A DNA stretch of 61,225 nucleotides from a virus. Shown one piece after another: positions 1 through 59,847 of the stretch; within the stretch, counting starts at the first letter, position 1, and the number at the start of each line of letters is the position of its first letter. The stretch is taken from the IMG/VR virus record IMGVR_UViG_3300044516_001491, positions 1-61,225 of that record, one strand, 5' to 3'. The notes under the pieces were generated by a model. That model was given only the letters and a program-made list of their open reading frames with translations. It made no database searches and was not told the DNA's origin. The position numbers and the translations under genes are program-made.

Positions 1-61
1 CAACTTGTCTGCCGTCGGAGAAGTCAACGTCGATAGTATCGTGAACCTCTGGTGGGGTCAA
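1..61 (-). CDS. 5' end of a gene running off the left edge
   Basis: A reading frame begins at a TTG that overlaps the stop of the upstream gene (TTGA) and stays open to the window edge. The visible 20 codons read (M)TPPEVHDTIDVDFSDGRQV. A GAGG seven bases before the TTG could be its ribosome site. The four-base overlap matches the coupling seen throughout the minus-strand operons here. Too short to assign a function; the start is not certain. Confidence 0.35.
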   Translation of the reverse strand, partial: MTPPEVHDTIDVDFSDGRQV

Positions 62-480
62 ATGTCATCCTCTTCAATACCGTCAAGTTTGTCCTGCTCT
101 TTAAAGGACTGCTCTATGTCAAGTTGGTGCTTTCGCTGCTGGGGAACGCTCTTCCTTGACTTCGCAAGGTTATCATAGCACCAGTGGCAAACATTGTATC
201 GCTTTTGCCCCTTAGCCCGTGGAACCATTGGCTCTGGGACCAGTTCGTTTTCGTGATGCTGGCCAACTGGCCCTGCCATGATGCCACAAGAAGCGCATTG
301 AGGGTGGGAGCGTTTGAGCTTTTGGTACGTCTCCAGGACCGGGGTAATGGTCTTGTGAAGTCGGATTAGGGCAGAGGCTAGCTCGCGGACCTCTCGTCCG
401 CGCTCTCGTATTTCGTCGCACAGCACGCAGCTAAGCTGCTCGTCGTGCGGCCGGTGTTCAATGTGTTGGTCAATTTCCAT
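58..480 (-). CDS. Cys-rich putative zinc-binding protein
   Basis: A 140-residue protein of unknown function. It has three CxxC-type pairs (CVLC near residue 18, CASC near 61, CHWC near 98) and a His pair (QHH) following the second, so one or two zinc sites are likely. The middle resembles the zinc-knuckle part of HNH-like phage proteins, but I see no complete nuclease motif. The C-terminus is acidic. The ATG has no Shine-Dalgarno sequence: CTCCTT precedes it, and a TAGTAT -10 element ends six bases upstream, so a leaderless message is likely. It is divergent from the capsid protease gene. Confidence 0.6.
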   Translation of the reverse strand: MEIDQHIEHRPHDEQLSCVLCDEIRERGREVRELASALIRLHKTITPVLETYQKLKRSHPQCASCGIMAGPVGQHHENELVPEPMVPRAKGQKRYNVCHWCYDNLAKSRKSVPQQRKHQLDIEQSFKEQDKLDGIEEDDI

Positions 481-5671: not shown

Positions 5672-6355
5672 ATGGCAAAAGGTGAAGTTACTTTTAATAT
5701 CAAATCGGCAGAAGAAAGTCTAAGGAAAGTTAGGAAGGTTCTCACGGAGTCAACAAAAGAACTAGAGCCTGCATTTGCGGGTGCCGCCGTCAAGATCGTT
5801 ACTGATGCGGTATATGGTGGCCCCTCAAGCCTTGCCGGAATGGCCTCCGACCTTGCCCCGGTTGACACTGGCGCATTGGTTGCCGGTCTTGAGTCTCCAG
5901 ACTCCAATGAATCCTTTGATAAAGGCAGAACATCGCAAAGCGTGTTCTCTGTTTCCCCTGTGGGCAAACGTGGCGTTCAATATGTTTCCGTGACATATGG
6001 CACAGATCCGACGGACAAGGACGGAATGCCTTACGCTGAAGCAGCTCCTGGCGACTTTCTTTCTGCTCCAGCAGCAAAATTTCGCGGCCAAATGCAATCC
6101 ATCGGCAACGAAATCTCTCGATCTATTGCGGCTATTATTGCATCAAACCTAAAAGTTGCCACGGCTAAGGGCGGCGGCTACGTTCCAGCCAAAACAAAGC
6201 TAAGCACCTGGGGCGTAGTAAAGCTTATAGAAAAGTTTGGGACCGCGCCCATTGAATCAGCCAGTGGCCGTGGCTACGGCTACCGAAAACTTGCATCAAT
6301 GTCGCGGTCCCGGTACCGGCGCATTATGAGCCAGCGACGCTCCCGGCTTAAGTAA
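5672..6355 (+). CDS. HK97 gp10-like neck / tail completion protein
   Basis: A 227-residue protein. The N-terminus EVTFNIKSAEESLRKVRKVL followed by helices, then DLAPVDTGALVAGLES, is the signature of HK97 gp10-like proteins (xxPVDTGxLRxS). The chain continues with a strand region (VQYVSVTYGTDPTDK) and a second part around KTKLSTWGVVKLIEKFG. The end is strongly basic (SMSRSRYRRIMSQRRSRLK). Its last eight bases overlap the end of the antisense phosphoesterase gene. Confidence 0.75.
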   Translation: MAKGEVTFNIKSAEESLRKVRKVLTESTKELEPAFAGAAVKIVTDAVYGGPSSLAGMASDLAPVDTGALVAGLESPDSNESFDKGRTSQSVFSVSPVGKRGVQYVSVTYGTDPTDKDGMPYAEAAPGDFLSAPAAKFRGQMQSIGNEISRSIAAIIASNLKVATAKGGGYVPAKTKLSTWGVVKLIEKFGTAPIESASGRGYGYRKLASMSRSRYRRIMSQRRSRLK

Positions 6356-7616
6356 GTCGAATCAAATACTCAGCGGTCACGCCGTCCTTGTGCTGGAATA
6401 GCAGCCACTGGCACGGCTCTCCGGCAGAAGCAAGCAGCTCCTGAGCGTAGGTGTTTGAGCTCTCGGTCGAGCCACCGCTCCAGTGGGTAATCCCATTGAG
6501 GTACATGCGTGTCGGGGTGTGGAAGTGGCCAGCTGCGCTGTAATCAAACGGCGCCACGGTCATGTTCCATCCCTGAAGCTTCTTGCCAAAGCCGTACCAG
6601 GGGAAGCCGGCAAATCCGCCGGAGACCTGATCCCCGTGGAACAGGAACCAAGTCTTTCCCTTGACTTCGTCGGTTGCAAACCAGGCGCGCTCGCCCTTGG
6701 CAAGAGTTTCAACCCACTCAACGTTCTTCTGCTCCTTTACGAGCATTGATGCAATCCGGTACATCATCGCGTCAGCGTTTGATTCCGGATGGAACGTTCC
6801 CTTTCGGCCAAGTCGTCCGTGGTTGCCAATGACCCCAACAACCTTGACATGCTCAAAAGAGCCAGCAAGCTTGCGAATCAAGTCGGCAAGGATTTCTCCG
6901 CCGTGGAATACCTGGTTGTACAGGGACGCATCAACCAAGTGAGCCTGCCCAGGGAAAATATCTTCCCCCTCAATCAGGTCTCCAAGGAGGTATACGCGAA
7001 CTTCCTTGACCGGGTGTGCCTTCCGCTGGATTTCAACCAGCTTCTGCACCTTCTCTGCCAACTGCGCAATGCGTTCTGCGCAGACTTCAGAATTGTAGGT
7101 TGGGGTAATCTTGCCAAGCTGCCAATCGGACAAAAGCAACACAGCAACCTCATCTTCGGCCTTTCGGGTGTCCGCCTTTGGCGGAGTAACCGGCTTAAGA
7201 TTCATTGCCGCCGCTGCTTCGTGTGCGGCTTGGTACACCGCCTGAATCAGCTCCTGCTTTGCAAGGTCCCTGTCGTCGAGCTTTCGCAGCGCCTTGCGAT
7301 GGGCTGCCTTAAGGCGCTCAATCTCCGAAGTTGCCTCGTAGGCGGTTACTTCTCGTTCGGCAATTGAGCTAATGATATCAATGTTCTTTGACATTGTCAC
7401 CCTTTCTCGCAGCGTTCCCGGGATTACGCTTGGCTTGCGGCCGTTTGTGATCCTGCGATCAATAAACGTACGCTGACCATTTAGCAATCGGCCCCGCTGG
7501 AGGCTGTAGGAATTAAACGTTCGATCTGGGTAGATCGCAACGAACTCCTCATACTCAAGACGGACTGCGTCTTGCTTCTCTTGGGATGTCCAGTTTCGAT
7601 ATGAAGATGTAGCCAC
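6348..7616 (-). CDS. calcineurin-like metallophosphoesterase
   Basis: A two-metal phosphoesterase carrying all expected motifs in order: LLSDWQLGK, LLGDLIEGED, GVIGNHGRLG, FLFHGDQ and AAGHFHTPT. The substrate is unknown; relatives include nucleases and nucleotide phosphatases. The GTG at 7616 adds about 74 residues (RNWTSQEKQDAVRLEYEEF) that look like a Myb/HTH-type DNA-binding segment. A second in-frame ATG at 7394 is preceded by AGAAAGGGTGACA, a better ribosome site, so a 348-residue short form may also or instead be made. The gene lies antisense between neck and tail genes, five bases after the H1-like gene. Confidence 0.85.
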   Translation of the reverse strand: MATSSYRNWTSQEKQDAVRLEYEEFVAIYPDRTFNSYSLQRGRLLNGQRTFIDRRITNGRKPSVIPGTLRERVTMSKNIDIISSIAEREVTAYEATSEIERLKAAHRKALRKLDDRDLAKQELIQAVYQAAHEAAAAMNLKPVTPPKADTRKAEDEVAVLLLSDWQLGKITPTYNSEVCAERIAQLAEKVQKLVEIQRKAHPVKEVRVYLLGDLIEGEDIFPGQAHLVDASLYNQVFHGGEILADLIRKLAGSFEHVKVVGVIGNHGRLGRKGTFHPESNADAMMYRIASMLVKEQKNVEWVETLAKGERAWFATDEVKGKTWFLFHGDQVSGGFAGFPWYGFGKKLQGWNMTVAPFDYSAAGHFHTPTRMYLNGITHWSGGSTESSNTYAQELLASAGEPCQWLLFQHKDGVTAEYLIRLT

Positions 7617-7621
7617 AGTGA

Positions 7622-7795
7622 CTACTTCTTAGAAACTAGGGTCTTAGCCGGGGCCGCCTTGGTAGGGGCCGCCTTGGTAGGGGCTGCCTTCGCTGGGGCT
7701 GCCTTCTTGGCCTTTGGGGCTGCCTTCTTCGTCTTTGGGGCCGGCTTGCTCTTCTTTGTGCTGAAAAAGCCTTTGAGAGTATTTACAAAGCTCAT
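7622..7795 (-). CDS. histone-H1-like Lys/Ala/Pro-rich protein
   Basis: A 57-residue protein: a short amphipathic N-terminus (MSFVNTLKGFFSTKK) followed by repeats of KAAP and TKAAP, with about one Lys in four residues. This composition matches the disordered tails of bacterial H1-like or AlgP-type proteins, which bind DNA through charge. The ATG at 7795 has AGAAAGGGTAAGA ahead of it. It is first in a two-gene unit with the phosphoesterase and has its own promoter with a 5' hairpin. A role on phage or host DNA is inference. Confidence 0.7.
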   Translation of the reverse strand: MSFVNTLKGFFSTKKSKPAPKTKKAAPKAKKAAPAKAAPTKAAPTKAAPAKTLVSKK

Positions 7796-7821
7796 GTTCT
7801 TACCCTTTCTATGTTCAAAAA

Positions 7822-7854
7822 CCAAGCTTGTGCTTGGCTGATGCGAGCATACCA
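7822..7854 (-). promoter_or_regulatory. Extended -10 promoter with 5'-terminal hairpin
   Basis: On the minus strand TGGTATGCT (7854-7846) is an extended -10 element. About seven bases later the message should begin, and a hairpin CCAAGC-ACAA-GCTTGG (7837-7822) starts there, followed by five T residues and then the ribosome site of the H1-like gene. The hairpin plus T run could also work as an early attenuator. Confidence 0.5.
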
Positions 7855-7927
7855 CACAAATCGTAGGTATGTCCAAATCAGTGTGGTCGCAGATTGCAAA
7901 AACGTAGATTCTTGTTGACTAAAAAGA

Positions 7928-7940: not shown

Positions 7941-8339
7941 ATGAATGGCGTGTACGAAACCTTTTTTAGCACCCTAGGCGGGGACGCCACCCTGCAGACT
8001 CTGCTGGGCGGCACAAACACGGATAAAAAGGTTTATCCAATCAATTTTACGGGTAAAAGCGGCGCTCCAGCCATTCGAGTAGCTATTTTGGGCGGAGGCA
8101 GCGATATTGGGCTTGCCATTGACCGGCCTATTGTAGACATAGTAATCGTGAGCAAATTGAGCGCCGCAGAGATTAATACTATTGGCAACCGGGTCGATGT
8201 GTTGCTTAATAGGAACCGACTGGCGGGCCCAGGTGGGGTTGTTCTCCACCTATCCCATAAAGTTACGCAACGGGACTTTTTCGATGACCCGAGCTTGGAA
8301 TACCGGCGTGTGATCCGGTACAGCGTCATCAAGACATAA
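7941..8339 (+). CDS. tail terminator / tail completion protein
   Basis: A 132-residue protein with the size, place and pattern of tail-terminator proteins (lambda gpU / DUF3168 type): an N-terminal helix around FFSTLGGDATLQTLL, the strand KVYPINF, APAIRVAILGG, VDIVIVS, then a helix (AEINTIGNRVDVLLN) and a final strand pair. Such proteins cap the tail tube and bind the head. It is the first gene of the tail block after the antisense cassette. Confidence 0.65.
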   Translation: MNGVYETFFSTLGGDATLQTLLGGTNTDKKVYPINFTGKSGAPAIRVAILGGGSDIGLAIDRPIVDIVIVSKLSAAEINTIGNRVDVLLNRNRLAGPGGVVLHLSHKVTQRDFFDDPSLEYRRVIRYSVIKT

Positions 8340-8352
8340 GGGAGAAATAAAT

Positions 8353-9015
8353 ATGCTTACACTTGGATCTGGTGTAGTCAAGGTGGCGTTCTGGAAGTCC
8401 GGAGCGGTCATTAATCAGACGAGCACCAACTACTTTGGTACGACCGGTGGCTACAACGCCGCTGGCGAGCTCGTAACGGTTGGCGAAGTCGGCGGCGACG
8501 TCGAGTTCGACATTAACTTCCAGGAGCGAGAGTTCTATGGTCAGTCCAACTTCCCAATTGCCAAGGCGTTCTTCGGCGGTAAGGCCGATATTCGCGCACG
8601 TGGCGTTGAGATTAACTGGGACAACGTAAAGAACCTCTTCCACGTTTCGCTCGGTGAGGGCACCGACCTTAGCTCAACCGTTTATGGCAACGCCCATGAC
8701 GACTTTACCGGTGGCTCGTACTCGGTCAACTTTGACCCAGACGGCGGCCGCCCGAACGCCAGCATTGCAAACGTGACTGCCCTCATGGGCCTGCCACGAC
8801 CGCTGTACGTTAAGTTTGAGCACATTCGCTCGGACGACCCTTCAAAGTCGGTGATTATTCACCTACCGAAGGCATACAGCATGCAGCTCATGATGCCGTT
8901 CACCCGTGAAGACATTGCCCGACAGGACATTGACTTCTCGGCTGTTGTTGACCGCGATTGCGTCACGACCGTTGGTGGTGCTAAGACCCCAGCAGTTGTG
9001 CTGATCTCGGCGTAA
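8353..9015 (+). CDS. major tail tube protein, copy 1
   Basis: A 220-residue tube subunit. It starts MLTLGSGVVKVAFWKSG and contains GEVGGDVEFDINFQEREFYG, NFPIAKAFFGGK, FEHIRSDDPSKSV and MPFTREDIARQDIDFSA, all shared with the following gene. AAGGGAGAAATAA is a good ribosome site. By analogy with siphophage tails it polymerises around the tape measure. I consider it the main subunit because it lacks the extra inserted domain. Confidence 0.75.
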   Translation: MLTLGSGVVKVAFWKSGAVINQTSTNYFGTTGGYNAAGELVTVGEVGGDVEFDINFQEREFYGQSNFPIAKAFFGGKADIRARGVEINWDNVKNLFHVSLGEGTDLSSTVYGNAHDDFTGGSYSVNFDPDGGRPNASIANVTALMGLPRPLYVKFEHIRSDDPSKSVIIHLPKAYSMQLMMPFTREDIARQDIDFSAVVDRDCVTTVGGAKTPAVVLISA

Positions 9016-10511: not shown

Positions 10512-13500
10512 GTGGCCGAGATTGATAATGTAGCACGGGTTGGCATATCGCTTGACTCTGCCGCATTCCAGGACGGTGTAGCCCGTACGCTCCGCGACAT
10601 TGACAGGCTTCTCAGCGGCCTTAAGGCCTTGCAGTCTGCGAACAAGCAAATCTCCCTTGCGTCTGGCGGCCTACTCGGCAGCGGATCGAAGTCCCCCGTT
10701 GCCGGATTTGCAAAAGACATTACTCGCACGGCGATACCGGCTCTGCGCGACATGGAACGCAATGCGATCCGTGTCGGCGGGGCCGTTCGTCGTTCTATGG
10801 AGGAAATGTCCCGACTAGCCGCAGCTTCGGAGCGTGTCCAGCGCCAAGCTCAGCGAGTCTCCTCCCCATCCTCCTCAGGCATAGTTCAAGACGCCAGGAT
10901 TCGCCGTGGCCAAGAGGCAAGCCTACGAGCCTTGATGGCAAAGGCCGAGCGCCAGGGGTTCCGCATTGAAAAGACCAATGGCGGACACTTTGCTGCCTAC
11001 CCGCCAGACAAGTCTAAGCAGATAGTCTTCTTCCCATCTACCGGAGGCGACCGCAGAAACGTTCAGAACATACGCTCGCAGCTGCGTCGATCTGGGTATG
11101 TTGATGACGTGGAGAGCGATAGGCCTGCCCGAGCACCTAAGCGTGCCGCAACACCAACGCCAGTCCCAACCCAAAGCTTTGTTGACCCGCGCAGCACTAG
11201 TGGAAAAATAGAGGCAAGGTATGTTGTTCGGGCACTTGAGGAGCTTGTTACTTCACGATCCAGCGAATACCCACAGTATCTCCAGCCACGTGCCCGTGGT
11301 GGCGCTGGCCGAGCTGAAAGCGTTGCCTCTCGCCAGCTCATTGAGGAGATCTCCGGTCGATTTGACCCAACGCAGATTTTCTTTAAAGGCCCAAACCTTG
11401 CAGAGGGAATTGTTGCAACCGTTCGATCTGAGGCAGCTAAGGCTGCATTGGTTCTTTCTGGCAATGCCCGTACGCTTGGCATGCAGCAACTTGCTTCCAC
11501 CCCGGCAGGTCAGAAGCAAATCAATAAAGCAGTTGCGGAGTTTATCACCGCTAACCCGGAGGCACTTGGCGGTACGGCTGGCGTAGCAAGAGCCCTTAAA
11601 GAAGCTTTAAAGATCAAAGAGTCTGGCAGGACTCCAGTTATAACGCGAGAGCTTGTAACAAGCCTTGAAGGCCTTGGCCCACGCGAGGGCGCACGCCTTG
11701 GCCACATGCTTAACACTGGTACCGGCATGACCGAAGCAGAAACGGCGCAGGCGATTGCTAGGACTATCGCGCGTATCCCTGGCGGCTTTGAGCGCGGAAA
11801 CGTTGGCGCCACAATTCGCAAAGGTGGACCAGCCGTTGAGGAGCTAAAGAAGCTCGTTCTTGCCGAGCTTCCAACGTCGGAGATACGTGCAAAATACCAA
11901 ACCAAGAAGGGGGAAACCTCTAGCCCAGCGATAAATACGCTCATGGAGAGGGTGCTGCTCTCTACGGCATTTGGCAACAACGCCGCAACCGAAAGTATGA
12001 TTGGCAAGATTCTGGAAGGTGAGCGCGGCGGCATTCCAGCGCCGCTACTAAGAGAACTTCACAAGGCGGTTGGGCCACAGCTGCAACTTCGAGGCAGGAT
12101 TGGGGCTGGAGAGATCCCAGCCGGAATGGACCCGATTTACAATGCGCTCCCAGAGGCAATTGAGCTGATCAATGCTGCCCAGGCGGTGGCCGGGGGCGCA
12201 AAGAGGATGGGAAAGGTTGCTGGCAATCTTGCAGAAGCTAGAAAACTTATTTCCGCGCAAACAGCTGCCTTTGGAGAGCCGTCCGCCCAAGGCGTTGAGC
12301 TTGCCTCAAGCATTCTTGCAGCTGGCCGGGGCCTTCCTGCATTCTTTGCCGGCCTTTCTACCTATGGCGGACGCGCAACGTCTGCAACCCAAGGCGGCAT
12401 GGGGCTTGACCCAAGCGCAATCACAGCAGACCCACGTGTCGCATTGCAGATTGCACAAGAGGCAGCCGCCACCATGCTTGCCGGACTCAAGTCCGGCTCG
12501 AGCAAGGGCGCTAAGGGCGTTGAGCGTCTTATCCAAGAGGCCGTTGAGGGCGCAATCCAGGCTTCTGCAGCCCGAGACCCTGGATATCTTGGCTCAGCGC
12601 CTCCAGCTTCTAGCGGCGGCGGCGGATCTGGCGGAGGGAAAAAGCCACCGCGCAGTAGCAGGGGAAATATGGAAGACCCTCCAGAGGAGGAGCCAGAAGA
12701 GCCTATTGCAATGCGCCGCCCAGAAAGCTCGCGCGCCTATCGCCTTAATGAGCGAGCCGTCGGCACTGCTCGCGGCTCAGCAAAGGCCCGAGCAGGCGGA
12801 TATCTTCCATATGAAGAGTCTAGCCCCGCCCGCCAGGCGCAGCTAAATACAAACCTAACCCGGGGATATTTAAAGCTTACCGAGGGTCTTATCAGGGTTT
12901 CTGAGCAGGGAAGCCATCCCTTGGGGGCAACGCATATTGAGGGCATGCTTAAAGAGCTTAATAACGCATACTCCCTTATGGGCTCTCGCGGGCTGCAGGT
13001 TCCAGAACTTTCCCAACACATGGCGATTGTCAGCAGCGTTCTAAAGAAACTTGGGATTGATCCTGAAACTGTTCCAAATTCAGTTTCTGGCGCGGCCATA
13101 CCAGGGTCGGCTGCCGTCACAACAGCCGCCACAACGGCGGCCACAACGGCGGCCACAACGGCGGCCACAACGGCGGCCACAACGTCGGCAACATCCGCTG
13201 CGACCACCGCTGCAAATCAAGTAGCGACAGCAACGGCTGCCACAACGGCTGCTGCAATTGTTGCCAAAACACCTGCAATGCAGCGCTTTGAGCGCCTTAT
13301 GCTCGGTCGTAGCGTCGCCATTGGGCCGCGCACCGCCAACACAAAGTTTATGACAGAGGCCGTTGAAGGCGTACTGCCAGGTATCACCGAGGCGTTTAAG
13401 CCCTTCCTGGAAAAGAACTTTGCATCTCAGATTTTGCAACACTTTAAGGCGTCGTTCCGTGGGCTACCTGGCGAGAGTGAAGGTTTGCAGGGGCAGACAA

Positions 13501-16500
13501 GCACCGGAGCATCTTCCGGGTTCCTGGAGATTGGGAACCTAAACCGAGGCTCGGGAGCCATTCTTCGTACTGCAATCCATGAAATTGCGCACGGTGCATT
13601 TGAGCGGATGAGAGAAGGTGGTTATCAAACGCCGGCCACGACAATGCATTACGGGCCAAAGGGAGAAAAACTTGGAGAAAAGAGCCCGGCGACAATTCTT
13701 GCTGCTGAAGGTGGCAGAGGAATTAGCCATGCTGACCCAATGTTCTACCAACTCCAGGCAGAGATTTCAAAAAGAACCGGTGGCCTCCTTGCCAATCTTG
13801 CATTCCACCAATATGCCCAATCGCGGCCGCAAGGCTTCAATACCCCCGGGCTTGGCGTTGGCATTGCCGCAGCGCAACTCACACCACATCTTCAAGAGCT
13901 AGCATTTAAAACTAAGCCCTCGCTTGTCTCCGCCTCAACCCTCTTTACTGAGTTTGCTACCAAGATTCATGAAACCGCAGCAAAGGTGCAGGGTGGTGGG
14001 GCTCCAATCCAAGAGCTGCTTGCCCAAGTTTCGGCAGGAATTGGAGAGCTTGGCAAGTCTTCCAAGATGTTCCCAAAGACCTCGTTCCTTGAGATTGCTT
14101 CTATCCTTTCTGAAACCATCCGATCATACGGAGAGGGCGGCATTCGGTCTGGGGCTGCCAAGCAATTCCAGGGCCTTAACATGCCGTTTGAACAGGCCCT
14201 GCAGCGTGCGTTTATCCAGGCTACCGGCTCGCTGCTCAAGCCAGGAAGCGAGCTTCGTGGCATAACTGGTATCTCCAATCGAACACCGGAAATGATGGCC
14301 GCGTTCATGGCCAACGCATCAGAGGCCGAGAAGCAGGCTGTTGCCATGGCCATCAACCCAGAAGCATTTGAAAAGATTATCAAGGGGCAAAAGCCCGGAG
14401 TAGCCGCAGATGATCCCGGGGTTCAGCAGCAGCTCAACGAGCTTACAAAGACCATCCTTCAGGCTACCGTTTCACAGATCAATGCCGAAATTGCCCAAAG
14501 TGGCGCGCTAGTACAGAAGGGCAGTCTCGTTGGCATGCCACTGCCAATAACCCGCCGTGGCGGTTTCTTGCCTGCCGGTGCCTACCCAAATGAATCTGGC
14601 CCTCAGTTCCGCCTGCCAGGCGGTGAGCCTGTGTACAACATTCCACCTGGAGGTTCACTTGTGCCGCTCAGCGGCCAACCTATTGATTTTGTTGAGAGGG
14701 CTCGCCAAGAAGCCGAGGCTCGTGCGGCCCGAATGCGAACTGCATCAGCGTACGGGCGCAGTATATTCGAGCGTTTTATCCCAGGTGTTGGGCAATACCG
14801 AGAGGCCCAAATAGAGTACGGCGGCCAGGCATTACGCTCTGCAGAAACCAAGCAGCAAGCGGTTGCGGAGTTCCAAAATAATGCCAAGGCGGCAGAGGCA
14901 GCCAGAGCCGCCAACAGCCGACTTAATCTTGTCATCCAAGATGGTCGCGTTCAATTTGGTCAGCTAGCAAATGTTTTGACCCAGGCAAATACCGGATTGA
15001 CACAATCCGTAACCGGCGTTCTTTCGCTTGGTCTTTCGTTTGCCATTGGCCAGCAGGCAATCTTTGCCTTTGCCGGCGGAATCCAACACCTCATGGGCGG
15101 CATCATTGGCTTTAACGCCATGCTTGAGTCCGCCGGAGTTGGATTTAATACACTTTTCAAGAATGCAGGACGCAGCGTAAGGGAAGCACAGCGGGAAACA
15201 GAATCAACAATTCAAACCCTTAAAGACTTTGCCAACGTCACAAACTTCAGGTTCGGTGACCTTGAGGTTGCAGCCGTCCGCATGCAAGCATTCGGCTTCG
15301 AGGTTGACTCAGTCAAGGCAAAAGCGCAAGGGCAAATGCCGATTCTTGAGGCATTTACAAATCCATACTCAACAAACGGTCTTAAGGAGTTCCGTGGAGC
15401 GCTTGTAAACATTGGAGATGCCGTTGCGGCACTCGGTGCCGAAGACGATAAGCTCCGCCGAGTAACGTACGCACTCGGACAAATGAACTCTGCTGGACGC
15501 GTCTATCAAAACGACATGATGCAGCTGGCAAACGCTGGTATCGCCGGATATGAAATTCTTGCTAACGCTTTGCTTGCGGAGCTTGAGCGAACTGGGCAAA
15601 CCGCTAGCGCAACATACAAGAAACTGCTAAACCCACAGTCCGCCATCGAAGAAATCCGCCGCCTTGCTCGCATCGGCGCCCTTTCCGGCCCCGGCGGCGT
15701 TCAGGCGATCCTGCAGGGGTTGGAGGCAAAATACGGCGGTGGAATGAAGGCATTCTCCAGAACCTTCCAAGGAGCAATGACCACGGTTGCGGATACGTCC
15801 CAGTCGCTTGTTGCAACAGCGTTTAATCCACTGTTCTCGGTTATGCGAGACCTTCTTGCTGGAACAAAGGCTCAAGAGTTTAACGACGGCCTTGCAACAT
15901 TCCTCCAGGGCGAAGAGGCAATAAAAGCATCTCAACTATTCGCACGTTCAGTTAAAACTGTTGCGGAGGCAATCCGATCTGGCCTCCCAGAGGGGCTTAG
16001 TGTCGCCGGCGGCTTTATGGATGCCGTGCTTAAGACACTTGGGGGCATCGGCGGCGCAGTAACGGCCAGCGGGGGTCCTCTAAACGCATTTATTACCTCC
16101 TCGGTTTCTGGATTTAAGGCAATGGCCGAGATCCTCTCTAATGATGTTATCCGCAAGCTTGGCGCATCGATTATTGTTGCCAGGGCCCTGTTTGGATTTA
16201 TCAGTAGCAACCCGCTTGTAGCAACTCTTGGAGCCAGCACGGCCCTTGTTGGGTTCCTTGCTAACGCCTATGAAAATAACCAGTACGGCGTTCGCTCTGC
16301 TTTTGACCGAGCTGCCCCGGGCATCCTTAGCTCAGCGGATTCAATCGCCAATTCGGTAATCCCAGGAGTCTCATCAGCCGCAGCCGCATCAATCGGGACG
16401 CTTGCCGCTACAATTGCCTCGGCACTTTCCACCGCAATGCCAGTCATTGACGGAATCTTGGCCCTCTTTGCTGGGATAATGAAGGTTATTGAGCCTCTTG

Positions 16501-19500
16501 CTCCGCTCTTTGGTGTGCTCTTTGCTGGATTCGTCGGCGGAAAACTTCTGGTTGATGGCCTTGCCCTTGCAATGACAAAGTTTGCAAGCGCTACTGCCAG
16601 GTCCGCAGAAAAAATGGAAAAACTCAAAATCAGCATGTTTGCATTCAAGGCCCTTGGTGCCGTAGAAAGCTATGGCCTGGAGCGTCTTGTTCCTATCCAA
16701 AGGCAAGACCAAGACGGGAACCTTGTCGCATCTGGATTCGGCGTTGACGATACGCCGGGAAAAACCATCACATCTCCGGCGCTTGTGCGCGCCATTGCAT
16801 TCATAGAAGCCCTGGGGGCCTCTAAGGGTGGTCGAGAATTTATTGCGCCATCCGGCGGGGTAGATTCAGTTCTCAATACTGGCGTTGACATAGATTACGC
16901 AGCTCAACGATTGGCGGAACTAAAGAAATACAGCATAGACGACCCAAAGGGATACAATGACTTCCTGGACAGCGTAGGCGCTAGCGAGCGCGCGCAAATT
17001 GAGCAAGCACTTGCCGCAGGACTAGAAAGCGTTACCAACAGAGTTAGGGGTTTTGGAGAAAGACTTTCCGCAGCAAGCGGAAAGCTCGCTAAGCTCGGCA
17101 TTATTATTGATGCAGTTAAGTCTCGCATGGGCATGCTGGGCGGAATCCTAAGCGGTTTGGGCATGTTCGGCAGCATTGCCTCTAACCTTCTCGGTCTTGA
17201 CGAGAGCATTTCTACTGTCTTTAACAATATGATGATGGTTGGAATAGCAATAGAGTCCTTGCACGGCGCTTTCATTGCTCTTACTGCAGCCACAAACGCG
17301 CAGATCGCAGCGCTTACCTTTGGTATTGCTGGTGCGGTCATGGCGTTGGCCTTCCTTACTGGAGAGCTTTCAAAGGCAGCGCAAGCGGCATTTAACAGTA
17401 ACCCAATTAACACAAGGGCAAAAGTTGTTACCGACACAAGGACCCGCCTTGAGGGCCAGGTTGGAAAAGACAAGGCAAAGGAGATGTTCCCGGAGCTCTA
17501 TGCCGAAGAGCGCGGAGTCCTTGATGACCTTGAAACGTGGTTCAGGCGCACAGTTGCCCTCATGGGAGCAAACGCTGACCCTCAGGGCGCTGCTGCCAGA
17601 TACGACACGCAACTTAACAGAGAATTGGTTGCGGACAACGATCCATCACGAGCTCAGCAATGGCTCCGAGACAACCCTGCGTGGTCCATGTCCACAACTG
17701 GCATTATGGGCCAACTGGAACAAGTGCAGCAAGACAAGATCAAGCAAATGCTTCGAGAGGGGTTCTCGCCTGACGAAGTAGCAAAAACTATGAACTTGGA
17801 TCAGGCATATGTTGAAGAGCTCTATGCAAAGTGGTATGGCGCTGGCGATGCCGAGGCAACAAAGTACATCAGCCTGCTTACCAAAGCCCTAGACGCCACC
17901 GGAGAGCTCCTGCAGCAGGCGCAAGAGGCAATGCAGAAGGCAATGGAAGCCTTCCAGACACCGCTCAATCGCCTCATGTCCCGAGCACAAGTCGCCATCC
18001 AGGCACTGTTTGAAGAAGAAAAGAAGCAGCTCGAAAACGAGCGAATGAATGCTCTTGCAAACGTAGAGGTTCTCTACAACGGTGAAATGATCCGCCTTGG
18101 CGTCCTTGAGCAGCAGTACGAGGCGTTGCAAGAGCAAGCAAAGCAGATGGAAAAGCTGCAGCAGCTTGAAGAGTCTAGGACCAAGGCATCAGAGGCCGCC
18201 CTTGACATGTTTGATGCTAGCGTTGATCCGCTGGAGCGCGCCCGCGCCGCGCGAGACGCCGCACGTGAGCTATTCAAAGATGAGCAGCGCGCACGTCTTG
18301 ACTCAATGGGGGCCGCCATCCAGTCCGGCAAGACCAGCTCTGCATACGTTGGGACTACCCAATTCTACGACGAGAAGGCCAGGGCGCTTGAGCTCGATCA
18401 GGCAGAGCGCAGCCGCGTCATGCAGGAGCGCATTGACGACCTGCTTAAGAAGATCCAGGAAGGAAAGATCAGCAAGTCCAAGGCATCTACCGAGCTTAAG
18501 GACATCTTTGGCGACGTTGGCCTTGACCTAGAGGTTGCTTCTGCCCAAGGTTACTCCTTCATGGAATCGTTCTCCTCTGGCTTCATGGCTGCGTTGCAGG
18601 CAAACATTAACTCGACCTTTGCCGCCCTTCCTAAGGCCATTACTGCCGCCCTAAACGTCCTGTCGCAATCTGCTGCGTACAAGAAGGCACAAGACGCGCT
18701 GAACGCCATCATGAACCCAGACTCGGAAACAAGAACCATCAAGGGTCAGACCATGGTGGACTTGCTTAAGGCACGTATTTCTGATGCTAAGAACCTTCAA
18801 ACAAAGCTCCGCGAATACTATGCCCTGGTTAAGCCAGAGGTTGGCGGAAACGACCCAGAGCGGGTAAAGCGCTTTAACCAAATTGGCCAATTCCTTGCGC
18901 AGCTCGAGCGCATGCAGAATGTCTATACCCCGGGCGGCAAGTACACGAGCGGCCAATACGACGATTTGAATACTGGGTTTATGGAGCAGTTCCAGACCCT
19001 CCTTCAAATGGTTATGGCTGGTCTCTCTGGCTATAACCCAGACAGGAATAGGGCTATGGGCGGGTCCCTCTCAAGCGCCACCAGCTATATGGTTGGCGAG
19101 CGCGGACCAGAGATGCTTACCATGTTCCAGCGTGGTGGTGGGTACGTCACCCCGAACCACAAGCTCCCACCGGCCCTTAAGTCGTCCGCTGGCGCCTTGC
19201 GAGCCGGCACATACGGACGCGCGGTTGGTGGCTATGTTGGATGGGGCAAAGGCATCATGCCTCAAGACAGCACCGGAGATCCAACGCCAGGACCAACGCC
19301 GGAGCCATCATGGGAGCCAACCCCGACACCAACACCGACGCCAACTCCTACCGGAACGCCATCCCCGACCCCGACACCAACACCCGGTCCAACGCCAACA
19401 ACCGGCGGCGATCCGTGGGGGCTGTTCCCGTTTAATTTTAGGATGTATACCAAGTGGATCAACTCGGTCATTCCACTTGGCGGCATTGGTCGAATCTACG

Positions 19501-22500
19501 GCGGACCAAATGGCGAGTTCACTGGCTATAACAGGGGCACAACGACTCCGTTTGAGGAAGATGACGCCTTTGCCGTAGTCAAGCGCCCAAGCTGGTGGGA
19601 CCGATTTAAGAACGATATTGGCGTTCGGAAGATTGCCCCATTCAATTGGGAGGGTCCTGGAAATATTAAAACATGGTCGCCGAAGAGCGGCTTTGTTCCG
19701 GGCATAAAGGTTGAAGGCCCTGATGGAAAGATAAAACTTAAGCCTGGCAACGCTATAAGTAAGAGCGCCGCAAACGTTATGGCCCAGGCGTTTAGGGGTA
19801 CCGCCATCCTCAGTACAGGCATGAGTTTCTTTGACATTTTGGGCGCTAGCGAGCGCGGAGAGTCTCCAGCTCGTGCCTGGGTGCGCAATATTGCCATGAA
19901 TGTTGGCGCACTTGCCATGGCAGTTCCAAATGTTGCAGGAGTAGTAGCCAGCGGCGGAATGGCAACCGCAGGAATGTTTGCTGCAAATGCGGCGGTTGCC
20001 ACTGCCCTAGACGCGATTTCTGGCAGTGTCTATGACCTCCTCTTTGGCAACGTCTGGGATGGAAAGCAAACACAGCAGTCTATTGATATGGGCCAAGAGA
20101 GGTCTTTGGGCTTCTTTGGCGACATCTTTAATTACAATAAGGGCTTCAACCCTGCTCCGAAGCCAAGTCTAACACCAGGAAACGAGCTTCTGAATTTGCC
20201 AAGCCCAACCGCAATGCCAAAGATTCGCTTTGGTGGCGGTCGAGCTGATGGCGGACCGGTTGACGTTGGCCGTGGTTACGACGGTAGGATCACGTACCTT
20301 GAGGAATATACCGACCCGGCCACTAGATTTATCCATCAGGTTCTTCAGGGCGGCCAAAGCAACAGCAACCTAGCTCGTTTTGACTTTATTGAAACTTTAA
20401 GCGCGCTTTATGGGGCTGGCTTGAAAACCATTATGCCTGGGCCAGATCTTGCTGACGCGTTGGCCAGGCTTGCTGGCTCTGGAAAACTTCCAGGGCCGCT
20501 TGCGGCATTTGCAAGCGACATGTTTGGGCTGTCTCAGCTTTCTAACGTCACAGCAAAAATGGGCTTGCGAGATACCTACGAGCTTGACCCTGGCCTTGAT
20601 ATTGTCAAGCGTGGAATCTGGGGCCGGGGAAGCAGGCCGTTGTCCACTAGCGTTGTGCGCTCGGTTGCTGGTGGCCTTGCAGGTGATTATGAGCACCTAG
20701 GGGGCATCCTAAGCCAACAACGCGGAAACTCATCTGGAGATGCAACAGGCTTGATGAGCATGGGCGGGGCAGGGGCTCCTATCTCCCTGGTCACCCGGGC
20801 TGGGTATAAGCCGCCCAATGTCACCACTTCATTCAATGACTTCCTGTCCGGCGATTATCACTTCCCATACTTTGCAACTGATCCGGATTCATTCCCCGAC
20901 GGAAAGCGCGGCCTAAGCCTTTCCGGAACGCTTCCACAGGGCGGAGCGGGGGCAAGCAGGCTTTCAGAGTTCCAAATTCCTGGCGGCATTCCAATTGATC
21001 AGATTGAGGCAATTTTTGGCCTAAACACCATGGTCGAAGAAGAGACTGTCCTCAGCAAACCAATTGGCAGGGAGACAACAGGTATCTTCCGCCGACCAAT
21101 GAATGACGCCGAGTTTAAGGCTCGAGCAGCCTTGCTTGCCGAAATGGGCTTTACTGACCTTGGAAATCACGCTGTTGCTACCGACGTCCTTAACCAACAA
21201 ATTGCCGAGTGGAGAAGCTCAACCAGCGCAGATGCAGTTGACCCGGAGACCCTTGCAAAAGCAAAAGCGGAGCTTATTCGCCAGAAAGAAATGGGCCGAA
21301 TCATTGGCACAGAAGATGGCTCAGTAAACCGACACGCGCAAGCAAACTCCCTCCTCCGCGCAGGGGTGTTCACAAGCATTGACGAGGCCGCGCTCTACGC
21401 TGCCACCGCTGATCAGCACTTTAAGAGGGTAGCCGCTAGAAAGGTTGATGCCGAGGCCCAGCGAAGAAGTGCTGCCAGAACAGTTCCGAGGAACCTCTCA
21501 TTTGACGAGAAGCTTGCACAAATCCGCGAACAACTCCTCTTTACGCAGCCAGAACTCTTCCCTGAACTTGGGCCCGTAGACGCCCCAGCGCTCAAAATGC
21601 TACTGGATGATGCGCCGGCAATTCCAAAGGCTGTGGGTGAGCAGCTTGACCTTTTCAAATTAAAGTCGGGTAGCGGATTTGACGTGGAGGATATTGAAGG
21701 GGGTCGACGTGATTCTGTTCGGATGAGGCCGGGCGAAGGTTTGCGTGGCCGCCCAGTTCGAACCGGAACAATCTTAAGGCAACCATCAACATTCCTTGGA
21801 AAGATTTTACACAATCTAGGAGTTTTTGGTAACGCAGGCAGTACAGAGGTTGAGAACCTTGGAGCCGGCCCAAGGCGCGTGGCAATGGGCAAAGATTTCC
21901 CTGGATACCTAGCAGATACTATTAGTTTTGACTGGGGAGATCTGCGAATACCACATGATTATATGGATTATGCAGACATGGGCTCCATTGATGCAATATC
22001 CAGCTCTGCTCGTCTAGCGTTGGCCGCCGCACCATTTGGCATGTTTGACCCTTCTGATCCAAGCAAGCGCCTACTGATTGATATCGTAGATCAAATCGGT
22101 GGAGAACCTTTTGCGGGAAGGGTTACCCGCTCAGATAGCAATTATGTACAGTTGCGTAGGAGCGATCTAAAAGGCGGCGCGCCGGAAACACTTATTCATG
22201 AGATTGGTCATCTTATGCATAATAAAGCATTTGGCCCTCTTAAAGTCCTACGCTCTCTTGTTGATCCCGAAGCTCGTAACCTTTTTTCTTCAAAATATAA
22301 AAAAGTGCTGGGCATTTATGAACATAAGAAAAATCCAGATTACGATGATCAGGGAAGGCCAAGGCATCACCCGGATTATAATCCTAAGCCATACACGATT
22401 AAAGACACATTGTTTGGTCATGTAAGTGCCCTAAAATACGCTTTCTATGAAACTCAAAACCATTTGCAGAATGCGCAACTTATTCGAGCCTACGAACGCG

Positions 22501-40133: not shown

Positions 40134-41535
40134 CAACTACCGGGAGTGGCTTAGGGTCAAAGCCCAAACTTCCGACGCTGCCTTTGCTGAGTATGTTAGC
40201 GGGCTGGTCTTTCCAAGGCATCTGCGCGAGATGGAGCAGTTTCTTGACGAGAACGAGCGCGGACTGGTGCTCATGCCCCGTGGCCACGCTAAGACTACGC
40301 AGTTGATTCATCGCGCCGCCCGCATGGTTGGCGTAACAAAGGGCAAGGTGCGCATTGGCGTTCTTACCGCAGTCATGTCTGACGCCCTGGCACGATCTAG
40401 GGCAATTAAGGTCATCATTGAGTCCCCGTACTTTGCCGAAGTTTTTCCCTGGGCGCAAGAAGGCGTTATTGGCTCCAAGTGGACCGACGAAGTGTGGACA
40501 GTGAAGGGGGCAAACCTGGGCAAGGACTCAACGTGCTTTGCCGACGGACTTGGCTCTATTAAGCCCGGAGCTCGACTTGACATTCTTTTTGCGGACGACA
40601 TGGTGGGCATGAAGGAAAACGCTACTGCTGTTCAGCGCCAGAAGGCAAGTGAAACGTATTGGCAGGTTGTCGACCCCATGCTTGTGCCCAAGGCAAAGCG
40701 TTGGTACATCGGCACGCGCTGGCACGAAGATGACTTTTACGCCGAGCTTATTAAGAAGAACGTGCCGCACTATCAGCGACGAGCGCTCGAGGAAGACGCT
40801 GTTCTCTGGCCGGAAATGTACACCGTTGCCGACATGGAGCAAAAGAAGATGGAGCTTGGCACGCCAATCTTTATGTTGCAGTTCCAAAACGATGTTACCT
40901 CAATGGGCGGCAACATCTTTAGGTATGAAAACTTTCAGCGTGTCGACAAGGTCCCAGAAGGATCACGCCGCCTAGGCGTAGACCTTGCATCCTCAGCCTC
41001 CCAGAGAAGCGACTACACCGCTGCTGTGGAGATTGTGGTAGACGACCAGCACAACATTTACATCATCGGCAGCTGGAAGTCTCGGTTGCAGGAAGGGCAC
41101 AGGGCTTGGTTGACCGGCATTGACGGCCAGGGAAACCTTGACTACGACTCTGGGCCCCGCGCACTATGGCCACAACGACTCGTTGGCCTCAAGGGGCTTG
41201 ACCCGGAGCTCGACGATGCTCGCTTCTTTGAGTCGGTCAACATTGAGGCCGTTCAACATCAGAGTACGTTCGTTCGAGAGATCTTGTCCACCACAACCCT
41301 GCCGGCAAGGCCGATTCGCCCGGACCGAGATAAGGTCACGCGCTCCAGGGCTCTTGCGGCAAGGTATGAGGCCGGTAAGGTCTTCCACGTAAACAACGCC
41401 CCTGGCATTGATGACCTTGAGATGCAGCTGCTTGCATTCCCAAACGGGTCACACGACGACGTTGTTGATGCGCTAGTGTACGCAGCCGATCTTGGCGGAG
41501 ACGGCTTTTACTTCACTGCAGCTAAGCGCTACTAG
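40114..41535 (+). CDS. terminase large subunit
   Basis: A 473-residue packaging motor. The ATPase has a Walker A variant MPRGHAKTT (residues 54-62) and Walker B LDILFADD (155-162), with a TRWHEDD coupling motif near 201. The nuclease domain shows Asp290 in GVDLASS and HDDVVDAL (447-454) near the end, the expected RNase H-like acidic residues. It starts at the ATG at 40114 inside the small-subunit gene. Its stop codon shares CTAG with the convergent subtilisin gene. It stands about 39 kb from the capsid genes. Confidence 0.95.
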   Translation: MTATVNNNYREWLRVKAQTSDAAFAEYVSGLVFPRHLREMEQFLDENERGLVLMPRGHAKTTQLIHRAARMVGVTKGKVRIGVLTAVMSDALARSRAIKVIIESPYFAEVFPWAQEGVIGSKWTDEVWTVKGANLGKDSTCFADGLGSIKPGARLDILFADDMVGMKENATAVQRQKASETYWQVVDPMLVPKAKRWYIGTRWHEDDFYAELIKKNVPHYQRRALEEDAVLWPEMYTVADMEQKKMELGTPIFMLQFQNDVTSMGGNIFRYENFQRVDKVPEGSRRLGVDLASSASQRSDYTAAVEIVVDDQHNIYIIGSWKSRLQEGHRAWLTGIDGQGNLDYDSGPRALWPQRLVGLKGLDPELDDARFFESVNIEAVQHQSTFVREILSTTTLPARPIRPDRDKVTRSRALAARYEAGKVFHVNNAPGIDDLEMQLLAFPNGSHDDVVDALVYAADLGGDGFYFTAAKRY

Positions 41536-42494
41536 CACATCCACCAATCATCCGTGCAAAGATCCGGGGCAAACTCATCCCCTGAGAACATTTGCAGCAA
41601 AGCCTTGGTGGTCTTGAGCCTCTGGGCAATGGTCATGCTGCTAGAAGTCGCCTCCATCACCATATTCAATGCCTCTTCGGTAGTGACACCGTTTTCTGCT
41701 GCGTAGGCTGCAATTGCCCCCGACACATACGGAGCTGAGAACGACGTTCCGCTTACCAACCTCTCGTCGGTTGGGCCCATGGCCAATACGTTGGCGCCCG
41801 GGGCATACAGCCAGACGCAATCTCCGTAGTTTGACTTAGTCCACGGAAGATCCAGCCACGTGCTTGCGGCTACCGCAACCATCAGTCCGTCGCCACAGCC
41901 CATTCGGGATGGTGAATACTTAGCAGCGTTTGCTCCATAGTTGCCGGCGGCAATGATTACTGGAATCCCAAGGTCGCTAATGGCCTCTACGGCCTTGTCT
42001 ACTGCCTTGTCAGCCTTTCCGCCAAAACTAATATTTACAACAGAGGTGTCTGGGCTTGCATTAGTTGCAATCCACTTAAGTCCAGCCAGGATTGCCGCCC
42101 TCGTGCCACCTCCACTGCAATTAAGCACACGCACGGGAACAATGGTTGCAGCCTCGGCTACGCCATAGCCGGCTCCGGCAATAAGAGACGCCACAGAAGT
42201 TCCGTGGCCCTTAGCGCAATCAAGGGTGTTCTTGCCAAAGCTATGAAAGCCAGGGGCAAGGTTTTCAATAAGCCCGTTGTCGGCAATACCAGTATCTACA
42301 ACGTATACCGTGATTCCAGCACCCTTACCGGCACCGCTCCAGACAAAACCGTCACGAACGTAGCCGCCACGCCAAAAATTATCTGGCTCAAGGATGCGGT
42401 CTCGGGCCCAGTCGTCTTCTGCTTGCGCAAAATACTCTGGGGCCGGAGAGCAGGGGACAATAATGAGCGCTAGCGCAATAATGAAGTTAAGCAT
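41532..42494 (-). CDS. secreted S8 subtilisin-like serine protease
   Basis: A 320-residue subtilase with the full triad: Asp67 (VVDTG), His97 (GHGTSVAS) and Ser251 (GTSFSAP), plus Asn185 (AAGN) for the oxyanion hole. Residues 1-18 form a signal peptide (NFIIALALIIVPCSPA), possibly a lipoprotein or cleaved export signal. The propeptide is very short compared with bacterial subtilases. Cys pairs (C93/C126, C200/C226) could form disulphides outside the cell. It ends the 47.0-41.5 kb operon. Likely acts on host surface proteins or on virion proteins during release. Confidence 0.9.
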   Translation of the reverse strand: MLNFIIALALIIVPCSPAPEYFAQAEDDWARDRILEPDNFWRGGYVRDGFVWSGAGKGAGITVYVVDTGIADNGLIENLAPGFHSFGKNTLDCAKGHGTSVASLIAGAGYGVAEAATIVPVRVLNCSGGGTRAAILAGLKWIATNASPDTSVVNISFGGKADKAVDKAVEAISDLGIPVIIAAGNYGANAAKYSPSRMGCGDGLMVAVAASTWLDLPWTKSNYGDCVWLYAPGANVLAMGPTDERLVSGTSFSAPYVSGAIAAYAAENGVTTEEALNMVMEATSSSMTIAQRLKTTKALLQMFSGDEFAPDLCTDDWWMC

Positions 42495-59083: not shown

Positions 59084-59197
59084 TTATCGCCGCTTATTCT
59101 TACGGGACTCTTTGATCTCGTACCGAGCCTGTTCCACAATGATGAGCACGCCCATGGCTATGGCAACCACCCATGCCCAATCCCCAAAATCACTCAT
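59084..59197 (-). CDS. 37-residue membrane protein
   Basis: MSDFGDWAWVVAIAMGVLII is one membrane helix, followed by a charged tail ending in KESRKNKRR. AAGGAGAAGGCCAA precedes the ATG, which overlaps the upstream stop. Function unknown. Confidence 0.55.
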   Translation of the reverse strand: MSDFGDWAWVVAIAMGVLIIVEQARYEIKESRKNKRR

Positions 59198-59847
59198 TTG
59201 GCCTTCTCCTTATTTTGCGTTGGCTCATATGTCCACGAGTCTTCGTCACCTAGGCCCCAACGGCCACCCTCAGCCGAGAACTCTTTGGTGCTGACCTTAA
59301 AGTTCGGCATCTTTGGCTCCTTTGCCACAATAGCCTCATCAAGCCACAGCACCCGGTTGTTTGGCTGGGCGGCAAATTGCCCGTTGTCTAGGCGGATAAA
59401 GTTATAGGACTTATGCTCAGAGGGGACACGCGCCCAGTTTGCGTCGATCTCGTTCGGTTCAGTATGTACCATGTCAACGGTAAAGAGGTAGTGCCCCTCT
59501 CCCCATGTGCCCGCCGGGGTTCGGAACTTACACCGCATATTCTTAAGCACGGCCTTTTCGATCACGCTCAGCTGGGGGGAGATAGCGTCCCAGAGCTGCA
59601 GGTCACCCAGCTTCAAGTCAGGGCTTGGGGTCTCCGGCTTCCAGACAAAGGCGCTGATCGGCAGCTTGTCATAGAGCGCACCGTACTCCGGAAGGAACGC
59701 TTCGATATACAAGGCGCGGTGGCGGATTGCCTTGACGGTTACCCAATAGGCAGGAGTGAATTCTCCGTGGCTGTCTTGCAAGTCGCGCAGGTACTCCTTG
59801 CGGACGTAGCAGGCAATTGGCGGGATATTTGCAATGACGTATGACAT
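59194..59847 (-). CDS. hypothetical protein
   Basis: A 217-residue protein of unknown function. VIANIPPIACYVRKEYLRDL, YWVTVKAIRHRALYIEAFLP and YDKLPISAFVWKPE suggest an all-beta N-terminal half; DLQLWDAISPQLSVIEKAVL and TWGEGHYLFTVDMVHTEPNE follow. AAGGGGAAGAT precedes the ATG. Related proteins are common in phages, with no activity assigned. Confidence 0.55.
   Translation of the reverse strand: MSYVIANIPPIACYVRKEYLRDLQDSHGEFTPAYWVTVKAIRHRALYIEAFLPEYGALYDKLPISAFVWKPETPSPDLKLGDLQLWDAISPQLSVIEKAVLKNMRCKFRTPAGTWGEGHYLFTVDMVHTEPNEIDANWARVPSEHKSYNFIRLDNGQFAAQPNNRVLWLDEAIVAKEPKMPNFKVSTKEFSAEGGRWGLGDEDSWTYEPTQNKEKAK

What the first reader, a model, noticed from the sequence alone, without database searches (positions are those of the whole stretch)
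6348..7854. Antisense phosphoesterase and H1-like protein inside the head-tail operon
The pair is read against all neighbours, has its own promoter with a terminator-like leader hairpin, and joins a metal phosphoesterase (with an added DNA-binding-like N-terminus) to a tiny histone-H1-like protein. It may be a late-acquired module acting on DNA.
Basis: partly seen in the sequence, partly recalled or inferred. Interest (0 to 1): 0.5.

Follow-up and report, generated by a model that had tools for sequence, protein, structure and literature searches.

The report
Antisense Mre11-like nuclease in phage operon
A phage carries, backwards inside its particle-building genes, a gene for a probable DNA-cutting enzyme with its own promoter and a small positively charged partner; its relatives keep such a gene, reversed, in the same slot, so it looks like a long-standing part of these phages rather than a recent arrival.

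Summary
On the minus strand, 6348-7616 encodes a 422-aa metallophosphoesterase (MPE) and 7622-7795 a 57-aa Lys/Ala/Pro protein, opposite to the head-tail genes. The MPE belongs to PHROG 284 ("exonuclease", called MRE11 in actinophages). Its metal motifs are invariant in 35 aligned sequences, motif I being DWQ. Its fold is closest to the archaeal PolD DP1 exonuclease and to Mre11/SbcD. SbcC was found in 0 of 11 related records. Activity is untested.

"Late-acquired" is not supported. Of 21 fetched contigs that hold both flanking genes, 21 have an antisense MPE between them: 20 of the window's subfamily, one of another PHROG 284 subfamily (25% identical). Composition is ordinary and the MPE is strongly constrained (dN/dS 0.03-0.05).

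The leader hairpin is real. It recurs just after the -10 with different arms in six clades, weakly in two, and mostly without a U-tract, so it is a 5' stem-loop rather than a terminator. The N-terminus is a family-specific three-helix domain without a significant structural match; most named relatives examined have a separate overlapping small gene there instead.

Best reading: a Rad50-independent DNA nuclease module, probably early, kept antisense to late genes. Timing is inferred. New variant of a known kind.

The parts
7846..7875 (-). promoter: -35-like TGGACA (7875-7870), 18-nt spacer, extended -10 with TATGCT at 7851-7846
   Evidence: scan; TATGCT, TATACT or TATAGT found upstream of the gene in 23 of 23 regions examined, 15 distinct leaders (I searched for these three hexamers, so their identity is partly by construction)
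7820..7839 (-). 5' leader stem-loop at the expected transcription start
   Evidence: -10.9 kcal/mol, z -2.76; stem-loops 2-9 bases after the -10 with different arms in six clade representatives, summed score reached by 0 of 5000 shuffles; U-tract not conserved
7803..7810 (-). Shine-Dalgarno-like AGAAAGGG of the small gene
   Evidence: read from the sequence
7622..7795 (-). 57-aa Lys/Ala/Pro-rich basic protein (16 K+R, 0 D+E), hydrophobic N-terminus MSFVNTLKGFF
   Evidence: similar first gene in L002-L005 and L007-L013, pN/pS 0.18-0.61 in six pairs; no room for it in L014-L020, where the MPE starts 38-41 bases after the -10; K/A/P-rich ORF also in L106, L109, L111
6348..7616 (-). 422-aa metallophosphoesterase, PHROG 284 'exonuclease'
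   Evidence: phrog_284 E 1.4e-49; D164, Q166, D213, N265, H266, H327, H364, H366 invariant in 35 aligned sequences; fold match to PolD DP1 and Mre11
7431..7616 (-). N-terminal domain (residues 1-62), predicted helices 11-19, 22-28 and 34-47 (34-56 when folded alone)
   Evidence: block pLDDT 88-92 for residues 11-40, folded alone; dN/dS 0.13-0.15 in three close pairs; no Pfam match for the window row, no PDB match with E <= 0.001
7209..7382 (-). long helix, coil-like (residues 79-136)
   Evidence: AlphaFold model, lower confidence
6351..7151 (-). metallophosphoesterase domain (residues 156-422)

Best explanation
It is a resident DNA-metabolism module of this phage family. A Mre11/PolD-DP1-type, metal-dependent DNA nuclease (PHROG 284) works without a Rad50/SbcC partner. 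A small extra domain fused to its N-terminus, in place of the separate small upstream protein of many relatives, probably brings it to DNA, and in many members a small basic protein is encoded first, probably on the same transcript. It is read from its own host-type promoter, opposite to the late head-tail genes, with a 5' stem-loop that probably protects the mRNA. I infer that it acts early, processing DNA ends during replication, recombination or attack on host DNA, and that late transcription across it later lowers its expression. Shown from sequence: gene order, orientation, family, motifs, fold, promoter and hairpin conservation, selective constraint. Inferred: nuclease activity, DNA targeting, co-transcription, role of the basic protein, early timing, shut-off.
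For: PHROG 284 at 1.4e-49. Metal-site motifs invariant in 35 sequences. Best solved folds: PolD DP1, a 3'-5' exonuclease subunit (Foldseek 1.4e-9, Z 16.2), and Mre11/SbcD (Z about 14-15). SbcC_Walker_B in 0 of 11 records, while 12 of 14 control genomes ring. Antisense placement in 21 of 21 two-flank contigs. A small gene overlapping the MPE start in 7 of 8 named phages examined, labelled helix-turn-helix in P104A and Marav. MPE-domain dN/dS 0.03-0.05 in five pairs. Hairpin and promoter conserved. In a near-identical longer contig SSB, RusA and a PD-(D/E)XK nuclease are also on the minus strand. Hammy gp34 is PHROG 284 (E 3e-101) and its overproduction nearly abolishes M. smegmatis growth (PMC10700055, passages read).
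Against: No biochemical data. Motif I has Gln where Mre11 has His (recalled), which could alter catalysis. Other, non-DNA MPEs (VPS29, LpxH) score close to the DNA enzymes. The portal gene is also on the minus strand, so strand alone does not show early expression. Some PHROG 284 relatives sit in the sense direction among structural genes (Gilgamesh; after a baseplate gene in L060), which does not fit a necessarily early role. In L109 and L106 the genes after the MPE are also on the minus strand, so there it sits at a strand switch, not inside a plus-strand block. In L141-L144 the tail gene has no such MPE upstream.
Confidence: 0.5

Rival explanations
1. The nuclease mainly attacks host DNA or shuts the host down (takeover function), and the basic protein shields or compacts phage DNA.
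For: Overproduction of the PHROG 284 protein Hammy gp34 is highly toxic to M. smegmatis (PMC10700055, passages; family); a strongly basic K/A/P-rich protein is encoded first.
Against: Three other DNA enzymes in that screen (gp58, gp68, gp69) were as toxic; the basic gene is absent in L014-L020, so shielding is not a general need.
Confidence: 0.2
2. It serves late DNA processing: trimming or debranching DNA for packaging, with the helper domain contacting the packaging machinery.
For: Position among head-tail genes; sense placement between the major capsid and head-to-tail adaptor genes in Gilgamesh and after a baseplate gene in L060; the overlapping upstream gene in DSL-LC01 is annotated terminase small subunit.
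Against: In the window family the gene has its own promoter and is read against the head-tail genes; in P104A and Marav the pair lies among replication genes.
Confidence: 0.15
3. The enzyme acts on a small molecule or RNA (cyclic or signalling nucleotide, RNA end), for instance against host defence, and is not a DNA nuclease.
For: VPS29 and LpxH score close behind the DNA enzymes; Pfam Metallophos is below its cut-off; unusual motif I.
Against: The top fold match and the PHROG and weak NCBIfam leads point to DNA exonuclease / polymerase small subunit.
Confidence: 0.12
4. A moron: a recently inserted, independently expressed cargo gene.
For: Own promoter, opposite orientation, between genes of a structural operon.
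Against: Present in 21 of 21 fetched two-flank contigs, no convincing own terminator, ordinary GC, PF00589 and PF07508 integrases in 0 of 11 records.
Confidence: 0.03

Closest known systems
PHROG 284 phage exonuclease, annotated MRE11 double-strand break endo/exonuclease in several Mycobacterium and Streptomyces phages
   Same: Profile match E 1.4e-49 over residues 89-413; same metal motifs, D-x-Q in motif I also in P0003, P0004 and Hammy gp34.
   Different: Fused N-terminal domain; antisense in the head-tail operon with its own promoter; only 25% identical over 200 residues to the P0003 subfamily, to which Hammy gp34 is closer (29% over 380 columns).
Mre11/SbcD
   Same: MPE fold (Z 14-15) and metal motifs.
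   Different: Gln for His in motif I, Rad50/SbcC partner in 0 of 11 records, different N-terminus.
Archaeal PolD small subunit DP1 (3'-5' exonuclease)
   Same: Best fold match (8ppt_A E 1.4e-9; 6t8h_A Z 16.2 over 220 residues); weak NCBIfam hit, E 0.00093, 18.2 bits against a cut-off of 445.
   Different: About 13-17% identity; DP1-specific parts and the DP2 partner were not tested.
Histone-H1-like, K/A/P-rich bacterial proteins
   Same: Composition and repeat style (recalled comparison).
   Different: No Pfam or PHROG match; hydrophobic terminal segment; DNA binding not tested.

Membership tests
PHROG 284 exonuclease | profile match over most of the protein | tested here: met
   E 1.4e-49, residues 89-413
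metallophosphoesterase superfamily | metal/catalytic motifs and fold | tested here: met
   D164/Q166, D213, N265-H266, H327, H364/H366 invariant in 35 sequences; fold Z up to 16.2. Against: Pfam PF00149 scores 14.4 under its cut-off of 21.5.
Mre11/SbcD | motif I D-x-H | tested here: not met
   D-W-Q in all 35 aligned sequences; that Mre11/SbcD carry His here is recalled
Mre11/SbcD | Rad50/SbcC partner gene | tested here: not met
   PF13558 in 0 of 11 virus records, 12 of 14 controls ring; the records may be incomplete
Mre11/SbcD | Mn-dependent DNA exo/endonuclease activity | not testable with these tools
   needs purified protein
PolD DP1 | MPE fold plus DP1-specific domains and DP2 partner | tested here: inconclusive
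   alignment covers essentially the MPE part of the model (residues 138-422); DP2 not searched
moron element | own promoter | tested here: met
   sequence and conservation only
moron element | own terminator | tested here: not met
   minus-strand candidates near the 3' end lie inside the MPE coding sequence and are weak
moron element | absent from the site in close relatives | tested here: not met
   antisense MPE in 21 of 21 fetched two-flank contigs
moron element | atypical composition | tested here: not met
   MPE GC 0.543, small gene GC 0.557, window 0.532
intrinsic terminator (leader hairpin) | stem followed by U-tract | tested here: not met
   five T after the stem in window and L002 types, four T then C in L003; interrupted in L004 and L005, none in L007-L011 and L014-L020
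histone H1 | globular domain or family profile match | tested here: not met
   57 aa, no Pfam or PHROG match
helix-turn-helix/SANT (N-terminal domain) | profile or significant structural match | tested here: inconclusive
   no Pfam match for the window row; SANT domain 2cu7 only at E 6.6

The most novel reading that the evidence does not exclude
The head-tail operon of these phages keeps a fixed antisense slot for a DNA nuclease, filled by distant PHROG 284 subfamilies, because late transcription through it silences the nuclease just when DNA must be packaged: a timer built from gene orientation.
Probability: 0.15. Interest if true: 0.6.

Novelty: new variant of a known kind. Interest (0 to 1): 0.42.

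Why it matters
Proteins similar to this one or to the second subfamily occur in 537 and 1045 of 50,697 phage records, and those listed are named by homology or not at all. Among the papers seen here, one reports toxicity of a PHROG 284 member on overproduction (PMC10700055) and one calls the function of a phage phosphoesterase, not shown to be PHROG 284, unclear (PMC8024684). This family offers a clean test of how such enzymes work without Rad50 (fused domain against separate small protein) and of whether antisense placement inside a late operon controls timing.

Tried and rejected
Late acquisition / moron: rejected. Internal ATG at residue 75 with a good ribosome site as the true start: rejected, because the N-terminus is conserved in frame (dN/dS 0.13-0.15 in three close pairs; dS saturated for L007 and L009) and that Met is absent from the aligned rows L008, L010, L011, L013-L015 and L018-L020. 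Leader as terminator/attenuator: rejected. N-terminal domain as a relative of the separate small upstream proteins: hhalign gave probabilities of 0.1 and 0.4 percent, so the parallel is positional only. N-terminal fold search: best E 5.1. Cluster K upstream genes (Chris gp34, Hammy gp33) align poorly with the P0005 type and are not counted as helix-turn-helix. P0005 in the phage collection: no match at 1e-3. Genome contigs: no relative of P0001 by its patterns.

Hairpin limits: MAFFT misaligned the leaders of L018 and L020, so no pair-count test was made. The test uses single-base shuffles, six representatives of clades that I named by similarity out of 11 typed leaders, and the last hexamer match upstream. 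Without the position rule, p was 0.11-0.20 for the L008, L014, L015, L017, L019 and L020 leaders, about 0.06 for L018 and 0.03 for L010. Fold z-scores of L014, L015 and L018 are near -1.

Synteny limits: the adaptor and tail-gene profiles were built from the window and MPE-bearing loci, so near relatives are favoured; several contigs are near-identical (L011/L012, L015/L016, and L021 to the window). SbcC and integrase absences rest on contigs that may be incomplete. The K/A/P-rich ORF was looked for in five second-subfamily loci and seen in three (L106, L109, L111; not L139, L140). I lowered the novel case from 0.18 to 0.15 on rechecking, since in L109 and L106 the MPE sits at a strand switch.

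Papers: search searches found none; some gave listings; passages were read in PMC10700055 and PMC8024684; a term search in PMC10202952 found none of the terms. 5' stem-loops as mRNA stabilisers, the D-x-H norm of Mre11 and the general notion of a moron are recalled.

Full report
What is there. The minus strand holds two ORFs between the plus-strand genes 5672-6355 and 7941-8339: 7622-7795 (57 aa) and 6348-7616 (422 aa). The larger ORF overlaps the end of its neighbour by 8 bases, and its start codon lies five bases after the stop of the small ORF. The two flanking genes match no family; 'head-tail' rests on their place between a head-tail adaptor (PHROG 442) and major head protein (PHROG 752) and the tape measure gene (PF20155). 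A promoter-like element with an extended -10 lies at 7875-7846. The contig is a virus record of 61,225 bases that IMG/VR classes.

Is it more than chance? Conservation is the argument. In 23 of 23 upstream regions examined (15 distinct leaders) one of TATGCT, TATACT or TATAGT is found (I searched for these three), and a stem-loop begins 2-9 bases after it. The arms differ: CCAAGC/GCTTGG here, CCAGGC/GCCTGG in L005, TGCCC/GGGCA in L007, GGCC/GGCC in L008, CGGC/GCCG in L014, GGCAG/CTGCC in L018. For six clade representatives the summed stem score is 65, against a null mean of 14.9 and a maximum of 48 in 5000 shuffles. Against this, L014, L015 and L018 fold little better than their shuffles (z near -1). 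A run of T after the stem is kept only in the window and L002 types and, shorter, in L003; in L007-L011 the stem runs into the ribosome-binding site. It is thus a 5'-terminal stem-loop; mRNA protection is my inference.

The enzyme. PHROG 284 'exonuclease', E 1.4e-49; Pfam Metallophos is below its cut-off; NCBIfam's best is the archaeal DNA polymerase II small subunit at E 0.00093, far below that model's cut-off. In an alignment of 35 sequences (the window's and 34 relatives) the metal-motif residues are invariant and motif I is always D-W-Q. D-x-Q is also read in P0003 and P0004 and in Hammy gp34, so it may be a family trait; that Mre11 has D-x-H is recalled. The AlphaFold model (mean pLDDT 70.9, pTM 0.63) matches PolD DP1 best (Foldseek E 1.4e-9; VIA Z 16.2) and Mre11/SbcD at Z 14-15; VPS29 and LpxH score similarly, so the fold does not prove a DNA substrate. 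SbcC_Walker_B was found in 0 of 11 virus records, with 12 of 14 control genomes positive. MPE-domain dN/dS is 0.030-0.050 in five pairs, with dS near or above 1.8 in two of them.

The N-terminus. Residues 1-62 form three predicted helices. They are conserved in the window's family (16 sequences), have no Pfam match in the window row (one of 16 rows hits DUF7815 at E 0.27) and no significant PDB match. In relatives outside the family a separate small gene overlaps the MPE start: in 7 of 8 named phage records examined (Dagobah, DSL-LC01, Chris, Gilgamesh, P104A, Marav, Hammy; not CCUG48898T-2). Two of these are annotated helix-turn-helix (P104A gp27, Marav gp46) and one terminase small subunit (DSL-LC01). 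Five marine-type loci have an ORF of 83-93 aa directly upstream, and myophage-type loci a different fused N-terminus. One helix-turn-helix-like type, P0005, recurs beside both MPE subfamilies: L023, L080 and L081 (3 of 80 loci searched), and L106, L109-L112, L139 and L140 (L107 and L108 end inside the MPE). No profile similarity links P0005 or the marine-type ORF to the fused domain. So the helper role is a positional argument, and DNA binding is inferred.

The small protein. It has 16 K+R and no D+E in 57 residues. L002-L005 and L007-L013 have a similar first gene, with pN/pS 0.18-0.61 in six pairs, the closest pair resting on three differences. In L014-L020 the MPE follows the leader directly. 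A K/A/P-rich minus-strand ORF also precedes the small gene and MPE in L106, L109 and L111, its hydrophobic stretch at the other end.

History. I fetched relatives of the head-tail adaptor and of the gene 8353-9015 without using the MPE as query. Reducing loci to contigs, 21 contigs hold both flanks and 21 of 21 have an antisense MPE between them. Twenty carry the window's subfamily, all twenty also found by the adaptor search; one (L140) carries a second PHROG 284 subfamily, 25% identical over 200 residues. Of one-flank contigs, six more have the first subfamily and eight (L106-L112, L139) the second, all antisense to the flank; but in L106 and L109 the following genes are also on the minus strand, so the MPE there sits at a strand switch. 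Without a detected MPE: L084, L113-L115 and L118, whose contigs end at or before the slot, and L141-L144, where neither adaptor nor MPE is found beside the tail gene (in L141 a minus-strand large-terminase-like gene lies there, read by eye). GC and GC3 are ordinary. PF00589 and PF07508 were found in 0 of 11 records, with 14 and 3 of 14 controls positive. The module looks old and resident in this family.

Setting. In a near-identical longer contig (186 of 188 bases in the overlap checked) the minus strand left of the window carries SSB, RusA, a PD-(D/E)XK nuclease and a cytosine methylase, but also the portal, so strand does not equal timing. Relatives lie among replication genes in P104A and Marav, after an amidase in L053 and after a baseplate J gene in L060, and between the major capsid and head-to-tail adaptor genes in Gilgamesh.

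Function. Overproduction of Hammy gp34, annotated MRE11, caused near complete abolition of M. smegmatis growth, as did three other DNA enzymes (PMC10700055, passages). Hammy gp34 is PHROG 284 (E 3e-101) and 29% identical to P0003. A phosphoesterase of phage MEP301 has no known function (PMC8024684, passages); I did not test its family. The best reading is a Rad50-independent DNA nuclease made from its own promoter, probably early; catalysis and timing remain untested.

Noticed in passing
window 58-480 (-): A conserved 140-aa cysteine-rich (CxxC...CxxC, zinc-ribbon-like by eye) protein on the minus strand, kept in relatives at 44-100% identity, without a PHROG, Pfam or NCBIfam match; in the longer contig it heads the minus-strand block with the portal.
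   Followed up: partly
window 10512-23906 (+): A 4464-aa tape measure protein (PF20155 E 1e-7, below its cut-off) with two HExxH-type, metalloprotease-like motifs read by eye (HEIAH, HEIGHLMH) and a weak ParB-like stretch (PF18763 E 0.0012).
   Followed up: partly
window 41532-42494 (-): A subtilase-family protease (PF00082 E 3.3e-21) convergent with the large terminase gene.
   Followed up: no
window 59194-59847 (-): Strong match to PHROG 3704, labelled ferredoxin (E 4.6e-87), but no Pfam match at 0.01: the label looks doubtful.
   Followed up: no
L151 5775-7946 (-) (longer contig G001): The portal gene is read opposite to the protease/capsid genes, a split of the head genes over two strands; the 723-aa protein also has weak HAD/LNS2-like hits after the portal domain, below their cut-offs.
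   Followed up: no
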